DNA of 64,000 nucleotides, taken from positions 1 to 64,000 of the IMG/VR virus record IMGVR_UViG_3300028557_000031, one strand, 5' to 3'. The DNA is from a virus. Under the pieces are notes generated by a model. That model worked only from the letters and a program-made list of their open reading frames with translations, did no database searches and was not told where the DNA came from. The translations under genes were made by a program, and so were the position numbers. This document shows, one piece after another, positions 13,382 through 34,646 of the stretch; the first letter of the stretch is position 1; every line of letters begins with the position of its first letter.

Positions 13382-13611
13382 GCTATAATAACCGTGGGTC
13401 GATGGGGACATATACCTTGAAACAGAAGTCCTTATGGTGTGGTTTCTACCTTAAAAGAAATGGAGGTAATGTTTGGTGTTCTACCGATTTGAGTGAACAC
13501 TCCACAGTTTCTGATGACGATGGCAAAATAGGAATCAGATATTTCGGAGGGTTAAACAAACCCTGACCTAAGCATGTAGTCCTTTATGGGTAAACTGAGC
13601 AAGACGTGGGT

Positions 13612-13805
13612 TAAAAATCGAGCCCCTTCATATCGTGAGATATGTCGAAAATCGGATGAATTCAGGGGAAGTCTTTCGGGATTATCCTGAGCCAAGCCTG
13701 GTAGGAATAGGAAGGTGCAGAGACTAGTGGGTGGTAGACGCTTCTACCGTAATACCACATTAGCGTCCGACATCTTGAAAAAGATGATGATATAGTCCAC
13801 TTGTG
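13612..13805 (+). other. Group I intron in tmRNA T-loop
   Basis: 194 nt, no ORF. The 5' exon ends in U, the intron ends in G. P7 is formed by GACTA (in GTGCAGAGACTAG) and TAGTC (in GATATAGTCC), the R and S elements of group I introns; a P4-type segment CCTGAGCCAAG lies upstream. The guide GCCC near 13622 pairs with GGG-U at the 5' splice site. Splicing restores a perfect T-arm. Group I introns at this site are known in some bacterial tmRNAs. Confidence 0.9.
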
Positions 13806-13839
13806 TCGAATCCCACCACCTCCACCGTGGACAAATTTG

Positions 13840-15506: not shown

Positions 15507-15582
15507 GCCGAAGTAGCTCAGTGGTAGAGCAGCTTTCGTAAAAGATGGTGTGACGCGATAGGTTCGATTCCTGCCTTCGGCT
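15507..15582 (+). tRNA. tRNA-like, tentatively Thr(CGU), abnormal anticodon arm
   Basis: 76 nt. Acceptor GCCGAAG/CTTCGGC is perfect, D arm GCTC/GAGC and T-loop TTCGATT are present. The anticodon arm fits AGCTT/AAGAT with one mismatch and a six-nt loop TCGTAA, so isotype is uncertain, and the variable region is about nine nt. Confidence 0.55.
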
Positions 15583-15600
15583 CTTAATTACTCAATAAAC

Positions 15601-16457: not shown

Positions 16458-16744
16458 TGTTCCCAATCTGAAAATTTCAAACCCCACATCAAACCAATCA
16501 TAGCCATTTCCCTTTCCGCAAGGTGTTTGTTGATTCTAAGATTTTTTCTTATAAATTCAGTACCCCACAACTGCCATTCATCATTTTGAGCTTTGGTCAT
16601 TTCCCATTCCTGATACCAAGAATCTTTTCTGTCTTTAATATCCTCGTAAGAAATATTATGACCTGCAATATAAAACATTTTGTTGATTAGTTCTTCAACA
16701 ACTTTCTGATTTTTTTCCTGTTTTGATAATCGCTTCTTTGTCAT
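16454..16744 (-). CDS. Hypothetical protein
   Basis: 96 aa, basic N-terminus (MTKKRLSKQEKNQK), Trp-rich middle, no recognised domain. Coupled by one-base-type overlaps to the HAD gene upstream and the membrane protein downstream. Confidence 0.68.
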   Translation of the reverse strand: MTKKRLSKQEKNQKVVEELINKMFYIAGHNISYEDIKDRKDSWYQEWEMTKAQNDEWQLWGTEFIRKNLRINKHLAEREMAMIGLMWGLKFSDWEQ

Positions 16745-17334
16745 TACATTAAAAATTTTATAATTTTATCCTTTATACCTGATTGCTTTATACCTTCCCA
16801 AGACCTTGGTGTTTGAACAAAATTACTTAAGCCTGGTTTGTTATCTGAACCATCTCTGTCAGAAAATTGAGCACCCAAAAAATCTATAGACATATCCAAA
16901 TCATCAACCGCAACCCAATGAGTAATCTCAGGATGAGATTCCAACCAATGTTGAATTTCCATGAATCTCTCTAATTCCAAATCAGCCCTGAATCTTAGTT
17001 TAGCCCATTCAGATGGAAATAAATCTTTAAACATTCCTGTGGTATCTATTGGTCTTTTAATAACACCCTGTGATAAGTAATAATCTCCAAGTTCCTCGAG
17101 TGTTGCGTGAAACCTCCAATCTGAACTCACCACATATTCTGCGCCTGTTTTCTCAAGAATTTTGTTGAAAACCTTAATCGCTTTTGGGTCGAAGTTATCA
17201 AATCGAACATATACAGGTAAGTCATTTGCTGATGTACCCATAGTTCTACCCTCTTTGATTTGTTTCTTCCTACGAGAACCCCAGTTCTCTGCCAAGCAGA
17301 TTACACCATCATTATCTAAGAATATTACTTTCAT
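16744..17334 (-). CDS. HAD-superfamily phosphatase-like protein
   Basis: 196 aa from MKVIFLDNDG. Motif I FLDNDG (nucleophile Asp and acid Asp), motif II VVSSDW, and late acidic motif VAVDDLD agree with HAD phosphohydrolases of the RNA-repair-associated (SAK-like) group. Substrate unknown; a polynucleotide 3'-phosphatase role is a hypothesis. Start chosen at the Met directly before motif I, 23 nt inside the previous gene. Confidence 0.82.
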   Translation of the reverse strand: MKVIFLDNDGVICLAENWGSRRKKQIKEGRTMGTSANDLPVYVRFDNFDPKAIKVFNKILEKTGAEYVVSSDWRFHATLEELGDYYLSQGVIKRPIDTTGMFKDLFPSEWAKLRFRADLELERFMEIQHWLESHPEITHWVAVDDLDMSIDFLGAQFSDRDGSDNKPGLSNFVQTPRSWEGIKQSGIKDKIIKFLM

Positions 17335-17494
17335 CTTGAATTGATTTGTAGTGAGATTCATAATATGTGAGTGGCATCAAATGTCCCTTTTCACCTGATA
17401 TTGCTTCTTTGAGTGTTGAATAATGAAACACTTGGTCATTGGAAACAACAACCCAATTTTTTTGGTTTGCTAAGTTTGGTCTAGTTAAATACAT
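17312..17494 (-). CDS. Small hypothetical protein
   Basis: 60 aa (MYLTRPNLANQKNWVVVSND...). Overlaps the next start by 23 nt and the upstream gene by 14 nt, consistent with an operon. No motif recognised. Confidence 0.55.
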   Translation of the reverse strand: MYLTRPNLANQKNWVVVSNDQVFHYSTLKEAISGEKGHLMPLTYYESHYKSIQDESNILR

Positions 17495-23222: not shown

Positions 23223-23237
23223 AAGGGTATATGTTGG

Positions 23238-23311
23238 TGGGCCTGGCAGGAATCGAACCCGCGACCTCGAAATTATGAGTTTCTCGCTCTAACCGTCTGA
23301 GCTACAGGCCC
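23238..23311 (-). tRNA. tRNA-Met(CAU)
   Basis: 74 nt. Acceptor GGGCCTG/CAGGCCC perfect, loop CTCATAA, T-loop TTCGATT. Elongator or Ile-lysidine type cannot be distinguished by eye. Confidence 0.87.
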
Positions 23312-23452: not shown

Positions 23453-23472
23453 GAGCAATTTTTAGTTTATTG

Positions 23473-23544
23473 TGACCCCGAGGCGATTCGAACGCCCGAC
23501 TAGTATGTTAAGACACACTGCTCTACCATCTGAGCTACGGGGTC
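23473..23544 (-). tRNA. tRNA, tentatively Lys(CUU) with 8-nt anticodon loop
   Basis: 72 nt. Acceptor GACCCCG/CGGGGTC and T stem GGGCG/CGCCT are sound. The best anticodon stem AGTGT/ATACT (one G-T) leaves an eight-base loop GTCTTAAC, so CUU is the likeliest anticodon but UUA or UAA cannot be excluded. Confidence 0.6.
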
Positions 23545-23624
23545 AGATTATTCGGTTAAAACTTAGTTGTTTACGCATCAAAATCTTAAAAAATGAACGA
23601 TAAAACAAACCAAAATGACCGAAA

Positions 23625-23861
23625 AATTTAACAAAGTATAACCAAGATTCTGTATTTAATCTATCATTAGTCTATTTGCCCCCACCTTACCCGACCAGCT
23701 CACCGTCGTGGGTTGTTTTGGGTTGCATCCTCGGTGGTAATGACGATATAAGGATGTGGACTTATAACTGACCATTATAAGTTTGTTCCCTTATATCTCC
23801 CACCTTAAGCGTGTGATGTCCTGAGTTTCCTCTCCTAAGAGCGACAGAACTTTGTTAAATT
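23625..23861 (-). ncRNA. rnpB: Compact RNase P RNA
   Basis: Catalytic RNA that trims tRNA 5' leaders. Read on the minus strand: P1 AATTTAACAAAG pairs with CTTTGTTAAATT; P2 TCTGTC pairs with GATAGA; P3 is CTC-TTAG-GAG; CR-I GAGGAAA is exact; P4 AAC(U)CAGGA pairs with UCUUGGUU, keeping the conserved bulged U; CR-V ACAGAA is exact and AATGA precedes it. The specificity region has a GATATAAGG/CCTTATATC helix. About 237 nt against 350-400 nt in bacteria. The protein subunit was not found here. Confidence 0.88.
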
Positions 23862-23942
23862 TTTTTTTTCAGGTTTAGGTTCAGGTTCTTCGGGTTTCGG
23901 TGGAACATTCCACATTTCATCCCAAAAGGTATATTCACTCAT
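23835..23942 (-). CDS. Small Pro/Glu-rich protein overlapping rnpB
   Basis: 35 aa (MSEYTFWDEMWNVPPKPEEP...). Its ATG overlaps the previous TGA as ATGA. The last 27 nt read into the 5' end of the RNase P RNA, so translation and the RNA gene share sequence. Coding status is supported by coupling only. Confidence 0.5.
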   Translation of the reverse strand: MSEYTFWDEMWNVPPKPEEPEPKPEKKNLTKFCRS

Positions 23943-31110: not shown

Positions 31111-31371
31111 ATGAATACAAATAACCCACTCAGTCATCAAGATTTGATGAACGCCTCACTTTTGTTTTCCAAAGCACTCTCTTTAATTTTAGATGACAAA
31201 CAAGGTATTGTTGTTGATATTGTCCCCGATTCAGGTGTTGACATGGGAGAAAACACAACCAAAGTTGTTATTTACCGTTTGGAAAATCAAATTCACGTGC
31301 AAAATTTAGAAATGGATATTGTTGAAGGAACTATAGTAGCTCTTAGTGATAAAGATAAAACTGAAAATTAA
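31111..31371 (+). CDS. Hypothetical protein
   Basis: 86 aa, acidic (MNTNNPLSHQDLMNASLLFS...). Its end lies 7 nt before the first carbamoyltransferase start, so likely the same transcript. Confidence 0.65.
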   Translation: MNTNNPLSHQDLMNASLLFSKALSLILDDKQGIVVDIVPDSGVDMGENTTKVVIYRLENQIHVQNLEMDIVEGTIVALSDKDKTEN

Positions 31372-31378
31372 TAAAAAT

Positions 31379-33046
31379 ATGACAGTCTTAGGTTTCTCCG
31401 TTGGGCACGATAAAGGTGCTGTAATAATCAAAAATGGTCAAGTAATTGTTGGAATAACACAAGAAAGACTTACAAGAAGAAAACATGATGGAGCATTCAC
31501 AGGTGGTGCAATTCCCGTGGAGTCTATTATGTATTGTCTTTCCGTATTGGATATTACCGTAGATGATTTAGACCTCATTGTTTACAGTTCAACTGAATTG
31601 GTCGATAACACATACGAACTTTTCAATAAAATCTTCCAAGTACCAAAAAAGAAACTTGTGTTCATGCCTCATCATTTGGCTCACGCATATTCTTCTTTCT
31701 TTTCTTCAGGTTTCGATGAAGCTGCAGTTATTGTCGCAGATGCATCGGGTTCAATTTTAAATCATAAAACTAAACTTGGTGAATGGTATCCTGAAAAATC
31801 ACATGAAGGACTCAATGAGGGTGAAGATTGGACTGAAGGTATTTCTTTGTATCATTTTACCAGAAGTGGTCATAGTGAAGTTTACAAGAAATGGATAAAA
31901 TATCCCGTGCCCCTTGAAAGTAATGATGGAGTGTCGTTAGGTACTATGTATTCACAGGGATGTTTACAATTGATATATGAACCCAACAGTAATGTTTGGC
32001 CGGCAGGTAAACTTATGGGATTAGCTTCATATGCAAATTCAGAATTTGTAAAGAATTTCCCTGAATACATAAAATATGAAAACGATGACATTCATATACC
32101 AAACGGTGGGATTCTTCCACATATTACTTGGAGAAATGATTTTCAAACTAAAGCTAATGTTGCAGGGGTTTATCAAAGAGAACAAGAAAAATCATCCCTG
32201 ATATTGGCAGATATGATTAAAAAACTCACAAACTCAAATAATGTTTGTACTGCAGGGGGTTCCTTTTTAAATTGTAATTCTAATGAAATTATCATAAATT
32301 CAGGACTATTCGAAAATACATTTTTCGTCCCTCCAGCTGATGACAGTGGTATTCCTCTTGGATGTGCGTGGTACGCATATCAACAAGTTGCTGAAATTCA
32401 ACAAACATTTCCATTGTGGCCCTACTTTGGTAAAAAGTATTCAAATAGAGATGTTGAAGAAGCTACGAGTAAATTTCCAAACCTCCGAGTAGAATATTGG
32501 GATAATTTTGATGATATTGTTGAAACCATAACTGACAGACTTGTTGAAAATAAAGTTATCGGATGGTTCCAAGGAGGTTCCGAAATTGGACCTAGAGCTT
32601 TGGGAAATCGTTCAATTATTGCGTCACCCACATCAAAATGGATGAAAGACAGAGTTAACCATGACCATAAACATAGAGAATGGTATCGTCCTTTTGCACC
32701 TGCAGTAATTTTTGATTTACAGAAAGAAATATTCCAAACTGATTATTTTTCTCCATTTATGTTAGTTACCGCAACTGTTGCAGATGAATGGAAAGAAAGA
32801 ATCCCTGCGGTAGTCCATATCGATGGGTCCGCAAGATTTCAATCTGTCACACCAAAAAGTAATGAAAAGTTTTTCAAACTTATAAATAAATTTTACGAAA
32901 AAACTGGAATCCCTGTTTTGTTGAACACTAGCTACAATGGTGGTCACGAACCAATGATTGAAACACCATTTGATGCTATTAAATCTTTTTTAGATTGTAA
33001 TTTAGATTTTCTAATAGCTGAAAATTATATTATTAGTAAAAATTAA
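31379..33046 (+). CDS. Carbamoyltransferase 1 (TobZ/NodU/CmcH family)
   Basis: 555 aa from ATG 31379. N-terminal Kae1-like domain with GHDKGAVIIKNGQVIVGITQ and HHLAHAYSSFFSSGFDEAA; C-terminal YrdC-like/substrate domain with GWFQGGSEIGPRALGNRSII and WYRPFAPAV, the conserved carbamoyladenylate and phosphate-binding regions. The family O-carbamoylates sugars or antibiotics; related phage enzymes are reported to act on hydroxymethylcytosine DNA. Substrate cannot be told from sequence. Starts at the Met before the GHDKG core. Confidence 0.92.
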   Translation: MTVLGFSVGHDKGAVIIKNGQVIVGITQERLTRRKHDGAFTGGAIPVESIMYCLSVLDITVDDLDLIVYSSTELVDNTYELFNKIFQVPKKKLVFMPHHLAHAYSSFFSSGFDEAAVIVADASGSILNHKTKLGEWYPEKSHEGLNEGEDWTEGISLYHFTRSGHSEVYKKWIKYPVPLESNDGVSLGTMYSQGCLQLIYEPNSNVWPAGKLMGLASYANSEFVKNFPEYIKYENDDIHIPNGGILPHITWRNDFQTKANVAGVYQREQEKSSLILADMIKKLTNSNNVCTAGGSFLNCNSNEIIINSGLFENTFFVPPADDSGIPLGCAWYAYQQVAEIQQTFPLWPYFGKKYSNRDVEEATSKFPNLRVEYWDNFDDIVETITDRLVENKVIGWFQGGSEIGPRALGNRSIIASPTSKWMKDRVNHDHKHREWYRPFAPAVIFDLQKEIFQTDYFSPFMLVTATVADEWKERIPAVVHIDGSARFQSVTPKSNEKFFKLINKFYEKTGIPVLLNTSYNGGHEPMIETPFDAIKSFLDCNLDFLIAENYIISKN

Positions 33047-33053
33047 TTTTATT

Positions 33054-34646
33054 ATGAGTGTAATCTATGGTCTTTTCGCAGCTGGACATAGTCCATCAAC
33101 AACTTTGATTGTTGACGGTGAAATAATACATGCAGTAGAAGAAGAGAGAATCAAACGAATTAAATCGGGAGAAGATTATGGGGCGTACCCCGATTTATCA
33201 CTAAAGGCTGTCGAAGATAGAACTAATATAAAACTTAAAGATGCTGATTATGTGGTTTTTGCTGAGCCAGCACCACCGGTATATGCTAGGAGATTAACTA
33301 ATGATAATTATTCTAAAGTGTCTCACCACCTTGCACATAATACCGCAGCTTATTTTACAAGTGGAATGGAAGGAAAAGTACTTTCAATTTCACATGATGG
33401 TGGTGGAGAATCTTCTTTTATGCGAGTCTATGTATGTGAGGATGGTAAGATGAATGAAGTTCATCGATTATCCGGAACTAACTCTGGCAGTCTTTCACAA
33501 CTCTGGGGATTTATAACAAATTGGATGATGGGTCGTAATTCAAATTGTAGGTTTGAATGGATAATGTGTAAGGATGAAGGTAAGGTCATGGGAATGGCAC
33601 CTGATGGTTATTACGATGAAAGAATCCAAAAAATTCTACATAGTATCCTATCATATAATGATTTGAAATTTTATCCTTCGGGAACTGACCAAAAAACGAA
33701 GTTTGTTATGGAACGATTACTCGAAGAAGGTTTTTTTGACACTCTTAAAAAACGAGAAGTTTTCAGTTTTAATTTACAATACTTTACTGAAGAATTGATG
33801 TTGAGATTTATCGACGACCTACACAAGAGAATGCCCGACTACAAGAAACTCTGTTTTTCAGGTGGTCTTTTTGCAAATGTTAAACTGAACCAAAAAATAA
33901 ATGAATTACCGTGGGTTGAAGAAATATACATTCTTCCTCCAATGGGTGATGAAGGGCTTTCTTTAGGCGCGGCAATTCATAAAGCAGTTGAATTAGGTGA
34001 AATTACAAAACCAATAAAACTTAAAAATGTATATTTTGGTTTTGATTATTCAGATGAAGAAGTTATAAACTTGGCTACAAAACATGATTTTTTAGTTAAA
34101 AAATATATTGTTGATGAAATTGCGACGGATTTAAATAAAGGTTTGATTATTGGATGGTTTCAAGGTAAAATGGAACTTGGACCACGTTCCTTGGGAGCAA
34201 GGAGTATTTTGGTAAGACCTACAGATTACAATACCCACGCAGAGTTAAATCGAAGATTGAAAAGATATGATACAATGCCTTTTGCACCAATGATAATGGG
34301 TGAGTTTTTTGAAACGGTTTTCCCGACCGCAAAATCCAAGTATGCCGCTCAGTTTATGACTTTAACATTTCCAACCCATGAACCATGGATTTATAAAATT
34401 CCCGCAGTAATTCAGAAATCGGATAAAACTGCCAGACCTCAGGTAGTGGAAAAAGAAAATCTTCCCAAAGTTTGGGAACTTATGAATTCGTACTACGAAC
34501 TCTCAGGAATCCCATTACTACTTAACACCTCATTCAATGCTCATAACGAACCCATTATTGAGCACCCCGAAAATGCTTTTGTTCACCTTAAAAATAAAGT
34601 GATTGATAAATTAGTTATTGGAGATTATGTATACGAAAATAAATAA
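33054..34646 (+). CDS. Carbamoyltransferase 2
   Basis: 530 aa, clearly paralogous: SVIYGLFAAGHSPSTTLIV, HHLAHNTAAYFTSGMEGK, GWFQGKMELGPRSLGARSIL and MPFAPMIM. Eight nt after carbamoyltransferase 1. Two successive enzymes suggest two sites or a heteromer. Sequence divergence between copies is high, arguing against a recent duplication. Confidence 0.92.
   Translation: MSVIYGLFAAGHSPSTTLIVDGEIIHAVEEERIKRIKSGEDYGAYPDLSLKAVEDRTNIKLKDADYVVFAEPAPPVYARRLTNDNYSKVSHHLAHNTAAYFTSGMEGKVLSISHDGGGESSFMRVYVCEDGKMNEVHRLSGTNSGSLSQLWGFITNWMMGRNSNCRFEWIMCKDEGKVMGMAPDGYYDERIQKILHSILSYNDLKFYPSGTDQKTKFVMERLLEEGFFDTLKKREVFSFNLQYFTEELMLRFIDDLHKRMPDYKKLCFSGGLFANVKLNQKINELPWVEEIYILPPMGDEGLSLGAAIHKAVELGEITKPIKLKNVYFGFDYSDEEVINLATKHDFLVKKYIVDEIATDLNKGLIIGWFQGKMELGPRSLGARSILVRPTDYNTHAELNRRLKRYDTMPFAPMIMGEFFETVFPTAKSKYAAQFMTLTFPTHEPWIYKIPAVIQKSDKTARPQVVEKENLPKVWELMNSYYELSGIPLLLNTSFNAHNEPIIEHPENAFVHLKNKVIDKLVIGDYVYENK

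What the first reader, a model, noticed from the sequence alone, without database searches (positions are those of the whole stretch)
23625..23861. Phage-encoded compact RNase P RNA
P1, P2, P3 and P4 (with bulged U), CR-I GAGGAAA and CR-V ACAGAA are all present in order, yet the RNA is about 237 nt, well short of bacterial forms. It lies among tRNA genes whose leaders it could trim. Phage rnpB genes are seldom noted.
Basis: partly seen in the sequence, partly recalled or inferred. Interest (0 to 1): 0.93.

Follow-up and report, generated by a model that had tools for sequence, protein, structure and literature searches.

The report
Phage RNase P RNA lacking specificity domain
This phage carries its own short version of RNase P RNA, the RNA enzyme that trims tRNAs; it lies beside phage tRNA genes, lacks the usual substrate-gripping part of the molecule, and belongs to a family seen in dozens of phage contigs, including the 735-kb phage.

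Summary
On the minus strand, about 23864-23622, lies an RNase P RNA with P1-P7, P15, P16/17, CR-I, CR-V and the bulged U in P4. Rfam type A finds it at 35.7 bits, E 3.9e-11, below its cut-off of 100. A covariance model of 24 RNAs that leaves out the window and its nearest relatives finds it at 111 bits, E 1.2e-24.

It is short because the specificity (S) domain is replaced by helix P7 with one variable hairpin; P18 is absent. With that model 46 of 70 fetched viral loci score 100 bits or more. P4-P7 covary and stay paired in about 99% of cells. The gene favours tRNA arrays: 21 of 39 loci within 200 nt of a tRNA, 6.7 expected.

Five of seven named GenBank phage records searched have it, including the 735-kb phage. 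RnpA, the protein partner, was found in 0 of 50 records. My open-access searches listed no earlier report.

Most likely it is an S-domain-free RNase P RNA that matures phage tRNAs with host RnpA. Activity is inferred, not shown.

The parts
23622..23864 (-). RNase P RNA gene (rnpB-like), S-domain-free form
   Evidence: RF00010 E 3.9e-11; model R2 111.2 bits, E 1.2e-24; fold z -4.2
23849..23864 (-). P1, 5' strand (pairs with 23637-23622, 16 bp)
   Evidence: letters; in the minimum-energy fold
23622..23637 (-). P1, 3' strand
23843..23848 (-). P2, 5' strand UCUGUC (pairs with GAUAGA 23665-23660)
   Evidence: 6 of 6 pairs here and in 39 of 44 RNAs parsed, several pair types at five of six positions
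23832..23841 (-). P3, minimal hairpin; its last G is the first of CR-I
23826..23832 (-). CR-I GAGGAAA
23819..23827 (-). P4, 5' strand with bulged U at 23824 (pairs with 23647-23640)
   Evidence: 99.3% of cells paired, 5 of 8 pairs with changes on both sides
23640..23653 (-). CR-V ACAGAA (23653-23648) followed by P4, 3' strand (23647-23640)
23815..23818 (-). P5, 5' strand (pairs with 23729-23726)
   Evidence: 99.3% of cells paired, 4 of 4 pairs with changes on both sides
23808..23813 (-). P6 pseudoknot strand, one C bulged (pairs with 23700-23696 in the P17 loop)
   Evidence: 99.4% of cells paired, 3 of 5 pairs with changes on both sides
23733..23804 (-). P7 (23804-23800 with 23737-23733) capped by a variable hairpin in place of the S domain
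23681..23722 (-). P15 (23722-23720 with 23683-23681) enclosing P16/P17; GGU (23686-23684) at the place that in bacteria binds tRNA CCA
   Evidence: P15 97.2% of cells paired, 3 of 3 pairs with changes on both sides in A4; P16/P17 read by eye; GGU function recalled
23472..23544 (-). tRNA gene downstream of the RNA, same strand (8-nt anticodon loop by eye, anticodon unclear)
23235..23311 (-). tRNA-Met (CAT), same strand, encodes CCA

Best explanation
A phage-encoded RNase P RNA reduced to the catalytic domain. The phage makes this RNA with, or close to, its own tRNA transcripts. The RNA folds into the type-A catalytic core (P1-P5, P6, P15-P17), probably binds the host's RnpA because no phage RnpA is recognisable, and cuts the 5' leaders off phage pre-tRNAs during infection. 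The S domain, which in bacteria grips the tRNA elbow, is replaced by P7 and a single hairpin. Shown here: identity as an RNase P RNA, loss of the S domain, selection on the structure, linkage to tRNA genes, no recognisable RnpA gene. Inferred: transcription, catalysis, use of host RnpA, substrate choice.
For: Rfam hit and hit by a model without its near relatives. Covariation in A3: 91.9% of 944 cells paired against 76.6% in shuffles, 145 cells with changes on both sides against 39 (P15 misregistered there). In A4, P15 re-registered: 98.9% of 648 cells paired against 77.1%. Of 39 viral loci 21 lie within 200 nt of a tRNA (6.7 expected), and 355 of 358 tRNAs in the stretches are on the RNA's strand. 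RnpA in 0 of 50 records; found in 10 of 14 control genomes. PMC5839562 (abstract and passages): the E. coli type A catalytic domain without the S domain still cleaves, about 120-fold slower; its P6-like pairing matters and P18 does not. The phage RNAs keep a covarying P6, and the window's lacks P18. The window RNA and that of L108 differ at five positions: two are unpaired and three keep a pair (pairing read by eye).
Against: No expression or cleavage data. Eight of the 39 loci have no tRNA in the fetched stretch and eight more have none within 1 kb. Some relatives carry altered CR-V: ACAAAA, ACAAGA, CCAGAA or ACAGGA. One of nine ARAGORN tRNAs in the window encodes CCA. Of 32 records of terminase relatives searched with R1, only G001, near-identical to the window, has the RNA, though most are fragments. 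Promoter and terminator scans are at chance level; the nearest promoter-like site upstream on its strand is about 390 nt away and no terminator-like site lies on its strand.
Confidence: 0.85

Rival explanations
1. A decoy: the phage RNA titrates host RnpA or binds tRNAs and so blocks host RNase P, rather than cleaving.
For: No RnpA found in the phage records; altered CR-V in some relatives; no S domain, so weaker substrate binding expected (PMC5839562 passages).
Against: The window keeps both universal motifs, the bulged U and P4. P4 (active site), P6 and P15 are under structural selection. The gene tends to sit in tRNA arrays on the tRNA strand, which fits processing.
Confidence: 0.08
2. A decaying passenger copy of a host rnpB with no present role.
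For: Found in 1 of 32 terminase relatives searched; S domain missing.
Against: Extensive compensatory change. The five differences between the window RNA and L108 are unpaired or keep a pair. One copy in each of the 19 of 50 records with a match. Contigs G140 and G156, which carry the RNA (L110, L173), have terminases with scores like the window's, so the gene is not confined to one phage.
Confidence: 0.04
3. Host DNA mis-assembled into a viral contig.
For: Metagenomic record of unknown completeness.
Against: A second, near-identical contig (G001, 84,612 bases) holds it. Named GenBank huge-phage records hold it. Of 22 cellular genome stretches matching the motif only 3 read as RNase P RNAs.
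Confidence: 0.02

Closest known systems
Bacterial RNase P RNA, type A (Rfam RF00010)
   Same: CR-I, CR-V, P4 with bulged U, P1-P3, P5, P6, P15-P17 in the same order; matched across model positions 1-367
   Different: No S domain beyond P7, no P18 in the window RNA, score far below the gathering cut-off, phage gene often inside tRNA arrays
Archaeal type T (also called type P) RNase P RNA of Pyrobaculum and Thermoproteaceae
   Same: S domain lost or degenerate, P6 kept, P18 absent (PMC5839562, PMC4919922 and PMC12974513 passages)
   Different: Archaeal and cellular; no type T family appeared among Rfam matches up to E 10. The phage form scores about equally on the bacterial model (35.7 bits) and the archaeal one (34.1). 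Looks like convergence (inference)
Diverged RNase P RNAs of Candidate Phyla Radiation bacteria (PMC8172020, passages seen)
   Same: Missing helices; missed by Rfam cut-offs
   Different: Cellular; the passages seen describe loss of P12, P13, P14, P16-P18 or most of P15, not of the whole S domain
E. coli catalytic-domain construct (PMC5839562, abstract and passages)
   Same: Same deletion, made in the laboratory; active
   Different: Artificial; the phage RNAs look like the natural equivalent, with a P7 hairpin cap

Membership tests
RNase P RNA (any type) | CR-I and CR-V flanking P4 with bulged U | tested here: met
RNase P RNA (any type) | P1, P2, P5, P15 in canonical order, supported by covariation | tested here: met
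   P2 6 of 6 pairs in 39 of 44 RNAs; P5 and P15; P1 in the fold and as a helix of 5-12 bp in 42 of 44 RNAs (best helix sought in a short stretch)
RNase P RNA (any type) | Cleaves the 5' leader of pre-tRNA | not testable with these tools
   needs RNA and an assay
Bacterial type A (RF00010) | Score at or above Rfam gathering cut-off | tested here: not met
   35.7 against 100 bits
Bacterial type A (RF00010) | S domain (P8-P14, CR-II, CR-III) | tested here: not met
   26-84 nt from P7 to P7, folding as one hairpin, in 35 of 35 aligned RNAs
Bacterial type A (RF00010) | P6 pseudoknot with the P17 loop | tested here: met
   99.4% of cells paired, double changes
Archaeal type T | S domain lost, P6 kept, P18 absent | tested here: met
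   P18 absence read from the window sequence; definition
Archaeal type T | Archaeal origin and archaeal protein subunits | not tested
   archaeal subunits not searched; host unknown
RNase P holoenzyme | RnpA encoded by the same genome | tested here: not met
   0 of 50 records, PF00825, E up to 0.1; records may be fragments

The most novel reading that the evidence does not exclude
S-domain-free RNase P RNA is a largely viral branch of the enzyme that has moved into cells and displaced the ordinary gene. In two genomes of one Planctomycetes family (G051, G052; the second labelled Gemmataceae) the only RF00010 match is this form, while 32 of 39 genomes drawn from that family carry an RNase P RNA above the cut-off. 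One of the two cellular RNAs (L143) is closer to two viral RNAs, L094 and L102 (93%), than to its cellular relative L150 (88%). If so, a phage ribozyme without an S domain runs all tRNA maturation in a living bacterium.
Probability: 0.35. Interest if true: 0.93.

Novelty: new variant of a known kind. Interest (0 to 1): 0.86.

Why it matters
RNase P is one of the few near-universal RNA enzymes, and viruses are taken to borrow it. Here many phage contigs, and the 735-kb phage, bring their own, in a form that the reviews seen describe only for a few archaea: catalytic domain without the S domain. It gives a natural system for asking what the S domain is for, offers small RNase P RNAs for engineering, and adds RNase P to the translation-linked functions of huge phages. 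It also suggests why it was missed: each S-domain-free example scanned with Rfam scored below the cut-off or was not found. It makes testable whether phages must process their own tRNAs because host RNase P is limiting, blocked or out of reach during infection.

Tried and rejected
Chance or false motif match: rejected by covariance models and covariation. Host contamination: rejected.

Phage-encoded RnpA: looked for, not found. A tRNA inside the S-cap of L125, suspected by eye: Rfam and ARAGORN find none.

Isolated phages with the RNA: blastn of six S-domain-free RNAs and two with a more conventional S domain against 50,697 phage records gave only three uncultured huge-phage records. A named terminase relative, a Flavobacterium phage, has no R2 match.

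In-place shrinkage of the planctomycete gene: four genes beside the L150 RNA and three of L143 had no tblastn match within about 1.5 kb of the full-length rnpB genes of 30 relatives, so a move is more likely; but the L143 contig is only 6.8 kb and could be viral, and genome completeness is unknown. RF00010 finds nothing in the genome of L158, not even its own RNA.

Mistakes of mine: the patterns were mis-specified and found two stretches without an R2 match. P15 is misregistered in A3 (37.5% paired) and was re-registered in A4. The P2 parser takes the best 6-mer before a GC, so it is lenient; it failed on L117, L125, L131, L161 and L173. Model R1 contains the window, so R2 was built without the window and ten others; its 24 sequences are 65-78% identical to the window core, the ten left out 75-93%, so the split, made by eye, is not perfectly clean.

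Rows left out: 50 of 80 terminase loci were searched and 32 of the 80. In one search, 5 of 44 loci were dropped (L108 and L110 as near duplicates; L143, L150, L158 as cellular); some of the remaining 39 are related, and one (L105, 41 bits) is of doubtful class. Several of the 46 high-scoring contigs are near copies of one another (L162/L168, L163/L167/L172, L165/L169, L166/L170). One search scored only seven candidates per genome.

Full report
What is there. The window is 64 kb of a 74,204-base virus record with a phage large terminase and nine ARAGORN tRNA genes. On the minus strand at about 23864-23622 lies an RNase P RNA with CR-I GAGGAAA, CR-V ACAGAA and a P4 helix AAC(U)CAGGA / UCUUGGUU with the bulged U. 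In the whole record RF00010 finds it at 35.7 bits, E 3.9e-11; in a short stretch RF00373 finds it at 34.1 bits. Both are below the gathering scores, so the default Rfam scan of the window reports none. The RNA folds better than 200 of 200 shuffles (z -4.2).

Relatives. Three usable scans of IMG/VR with RNase P patterns gave 29, 35 and 38 stretches, overlapping; two mis-specified ones gave two more. From 24 RNAs (22 viral, 2 cellular) that leave out the window and ten others, I built covariance model R2. It finds the window RNA at 111.2 bits, E 1.2e-24. Over the 70 fetched viral loci it matches 61 at E 0.001 or better; the nine without a match are seven of the 35 stretches and the two. Forty-six loci score 100 bits or more, 22 of them used to build the model and several near copies of one another; the other 15 score 29-87 bits. 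Contigs with the high-scoring form reach 527 kb (G067).

Rfam on relatives. Of seven S-domain-free loci scanned, five match an RNase P family at 32-63 bits and two (L104, L107) show no match at E 0.01; all are below the cut-offs.

Structure. On 35 RNAs, P4, P5, P6 and P7 are paired in 99.3-99.4% of cells, with 16 of their 22 pairs changed on both sides in some sequence. On the 24-sequence alignment 98.9% of 648 cells pair, against 77.1% in shuffles and 28.6-42.3% when the partner is slid. P2 pairs 6 of 6 in 39 of 44 parsed RNAs, with several pair types at five of its six positions. Between the strands of P7 there is no S domain: 26 nt from P7 to P7 in L161, 72 nt in the window, 84 at most, each folding as one hairpin in 35 of 35. 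Loci L112, L125, L129, L134, L158 and L174 were left out of that alignment but match R2 at 92-141 bits; L105, also left out, scores 41. Beside P7 an internal loop keeps A and G (5' side) and A (3' side) in 35 of 35 RNAs; its role is unknown and it could be what is left of tRNA-elbow contact (inference). P18 is absent from the window RNA (read from the sequence); some relatives have an extra hairpin at that place.

Setting. In 39 S-domain-free viral loci, 21 RNAs lie within 200 nt of a tRNA gene against 6.7 expected from random placement in the same stretches; 8 have no tRNA in the stretch, 8 have the nearest beyond 1 kb and 2 at about 0.5 kb. Of 358 tRNAs, 355 are on the RNA's strand; the three exceptions are in the window. 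In L113 and L115 the RNA sits 2-11 nt from the next tRNAs in loci that also hold a tmRNA. RnpA was found in 0 of 50 records carrying a phage RNase P RNA. Terminase_6N was found in 17 of the same 50; for the others phage identity rests on IMG/VR's classification.

Named phages. Seven GenBank phage records were searched with R2. Five have one match each: LR756501 (735,411 bases, E 1.3e-27), LR756511 (595,163), LR756502 (642,428), LR745206 (634,780) and LR756508 (484,177, E 1.1e-14). LR756504 (636,363) and a Flavobacterium phage have none. Three of the five were reached because an RNA matched them by blastn, so five of seven is no prevalence. The 735-kb length agrees with the genome announced in PMC7162821 (abstract and passages seen); 'RNase P' occurs 0 times there by the listing, and the passages on tRNA and translation genes do not list it ('RNase' occurs once, in a passage I did not identify).

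Cells. The GGUGAGC pattern in 84,980 species genomes matched 22 stretches, of which 3 read as RNase P RNAs: L143 and L150 in Planctomycetes genomes and L158 in a genome labelled Altiarchaeales. In 392 Planctomycetota genomes R1 found one match, the L150 genome itself (strict filters). In the family of that genome 2 of 61 match R1. RF00010 over 39 of the family: 32 above the cut-off, 3 with partial matches, 2 with none, and the two S-domain-free ones, which show no other match. The L150 RNA lies next to a 4-alpha-glucanotransferase gene whose best relative among the 16 genomes searched is in G051 (73%), so that contig is bacterial. L143 is 93% identical to the viral L094 and L102 and 88% to L150. 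This suggests exchange between phage and host; direction is not settled.

Mechanism. PMC5839562 (abstract and passages) reports that the E. coli type A RNA stripped of its S domain still cleaves, with about 120-fold lower rate, that a P6-like pairing helps it and that P18 then does not matter. It also notes that archaeal type T RNAs have a degenerate S domain, with P6 modelled and without P18. The window RNA shows the same combination. With no recognisable RnpA of its own the phage most likely uses the host's. Cleavage, transcription and partner are inferred.

Novelty. Eight searches of the open-access library listed no title or abstract start that reports a phage-encoded RNase P RNA; at most 30 papers of each list were seen, and subscription papers and bioRxiv are mostly not held. 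Exact phrases such as 'phage-encoded RNase P' found one unrelated paper. Passages of three RNase P papers found with the terms phage, virus or viral or phage do not mention one. I class it as a new variant of a known kind: a phage-borne, S-domain-free, type-A-like RNase P RNA.

Noticed in passing
window 13602-13818 (+): Group I intron by Rfam (75.1 bits), upstream of a block of tRNA genes; the interrupted gene was not identified.
   Followed up: no
window 23544-23472 (-) and 15507-15583 (+): tRNA genes to which ARAGORN gives four-base and two-base anticodons: possible frame-changing or damaged tRNAs.
   Followed up: no
window 23353-23325 (-): A perfect sigma-70 promoter match (TTGACA-17-TATAAT, 12 of 12) just before tRNA-Met; the scan as a whole is at chance level (6 found, 5.6 expected).
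   Followed up: no
window 16744-17361 (-): Protein with the HAD domain of Swiss Army Knife RNA repair proteins: possible RNA repair function.
   Followed up: no
window 31346-34646 (+): Two tandem Nol-like carbamoyltransferases.
   Followed up: no
L083, L085, L088, L089, L093, L095, L099, L106, L111: Short RNase P RNAs that by eye keep more of the S domain, in viral contigs with tRNA genes, in most of them many; L093 also carries GOLLD RNA and tmRNA. Of the nine, L089 and L095 pass the Rfam RNase P cut-off. A second, more ordinary phage form.
   Followed up: partly
L158 4409-4717, L134 10754-10996: S-caps enlarged by roughly 90-150 nt; by eye the inserts contain open reading frames.
   Followed up: no
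L161, L162, L163, L165, L166, L171: Changes in the near-universal CR-V motif: ACAAAA, ACAAGA, CCAGAA or ACAGGA.
   Followed up: no
G072 contig 1, 4868608-4870109: A genome of the L150 family with a full-length RNase P RNA and, about 0.9 kb on, a second weak, short RF00010 match (33.5 bits).
   Followed up: no
L091 3701-3887, L124 7968-8156: RNase P RNAs that look intermediate by eye: a P7-like helix plus a GUGAAA-like stretch recalling CR-III (87 and 78 bits).
   Followed up: no
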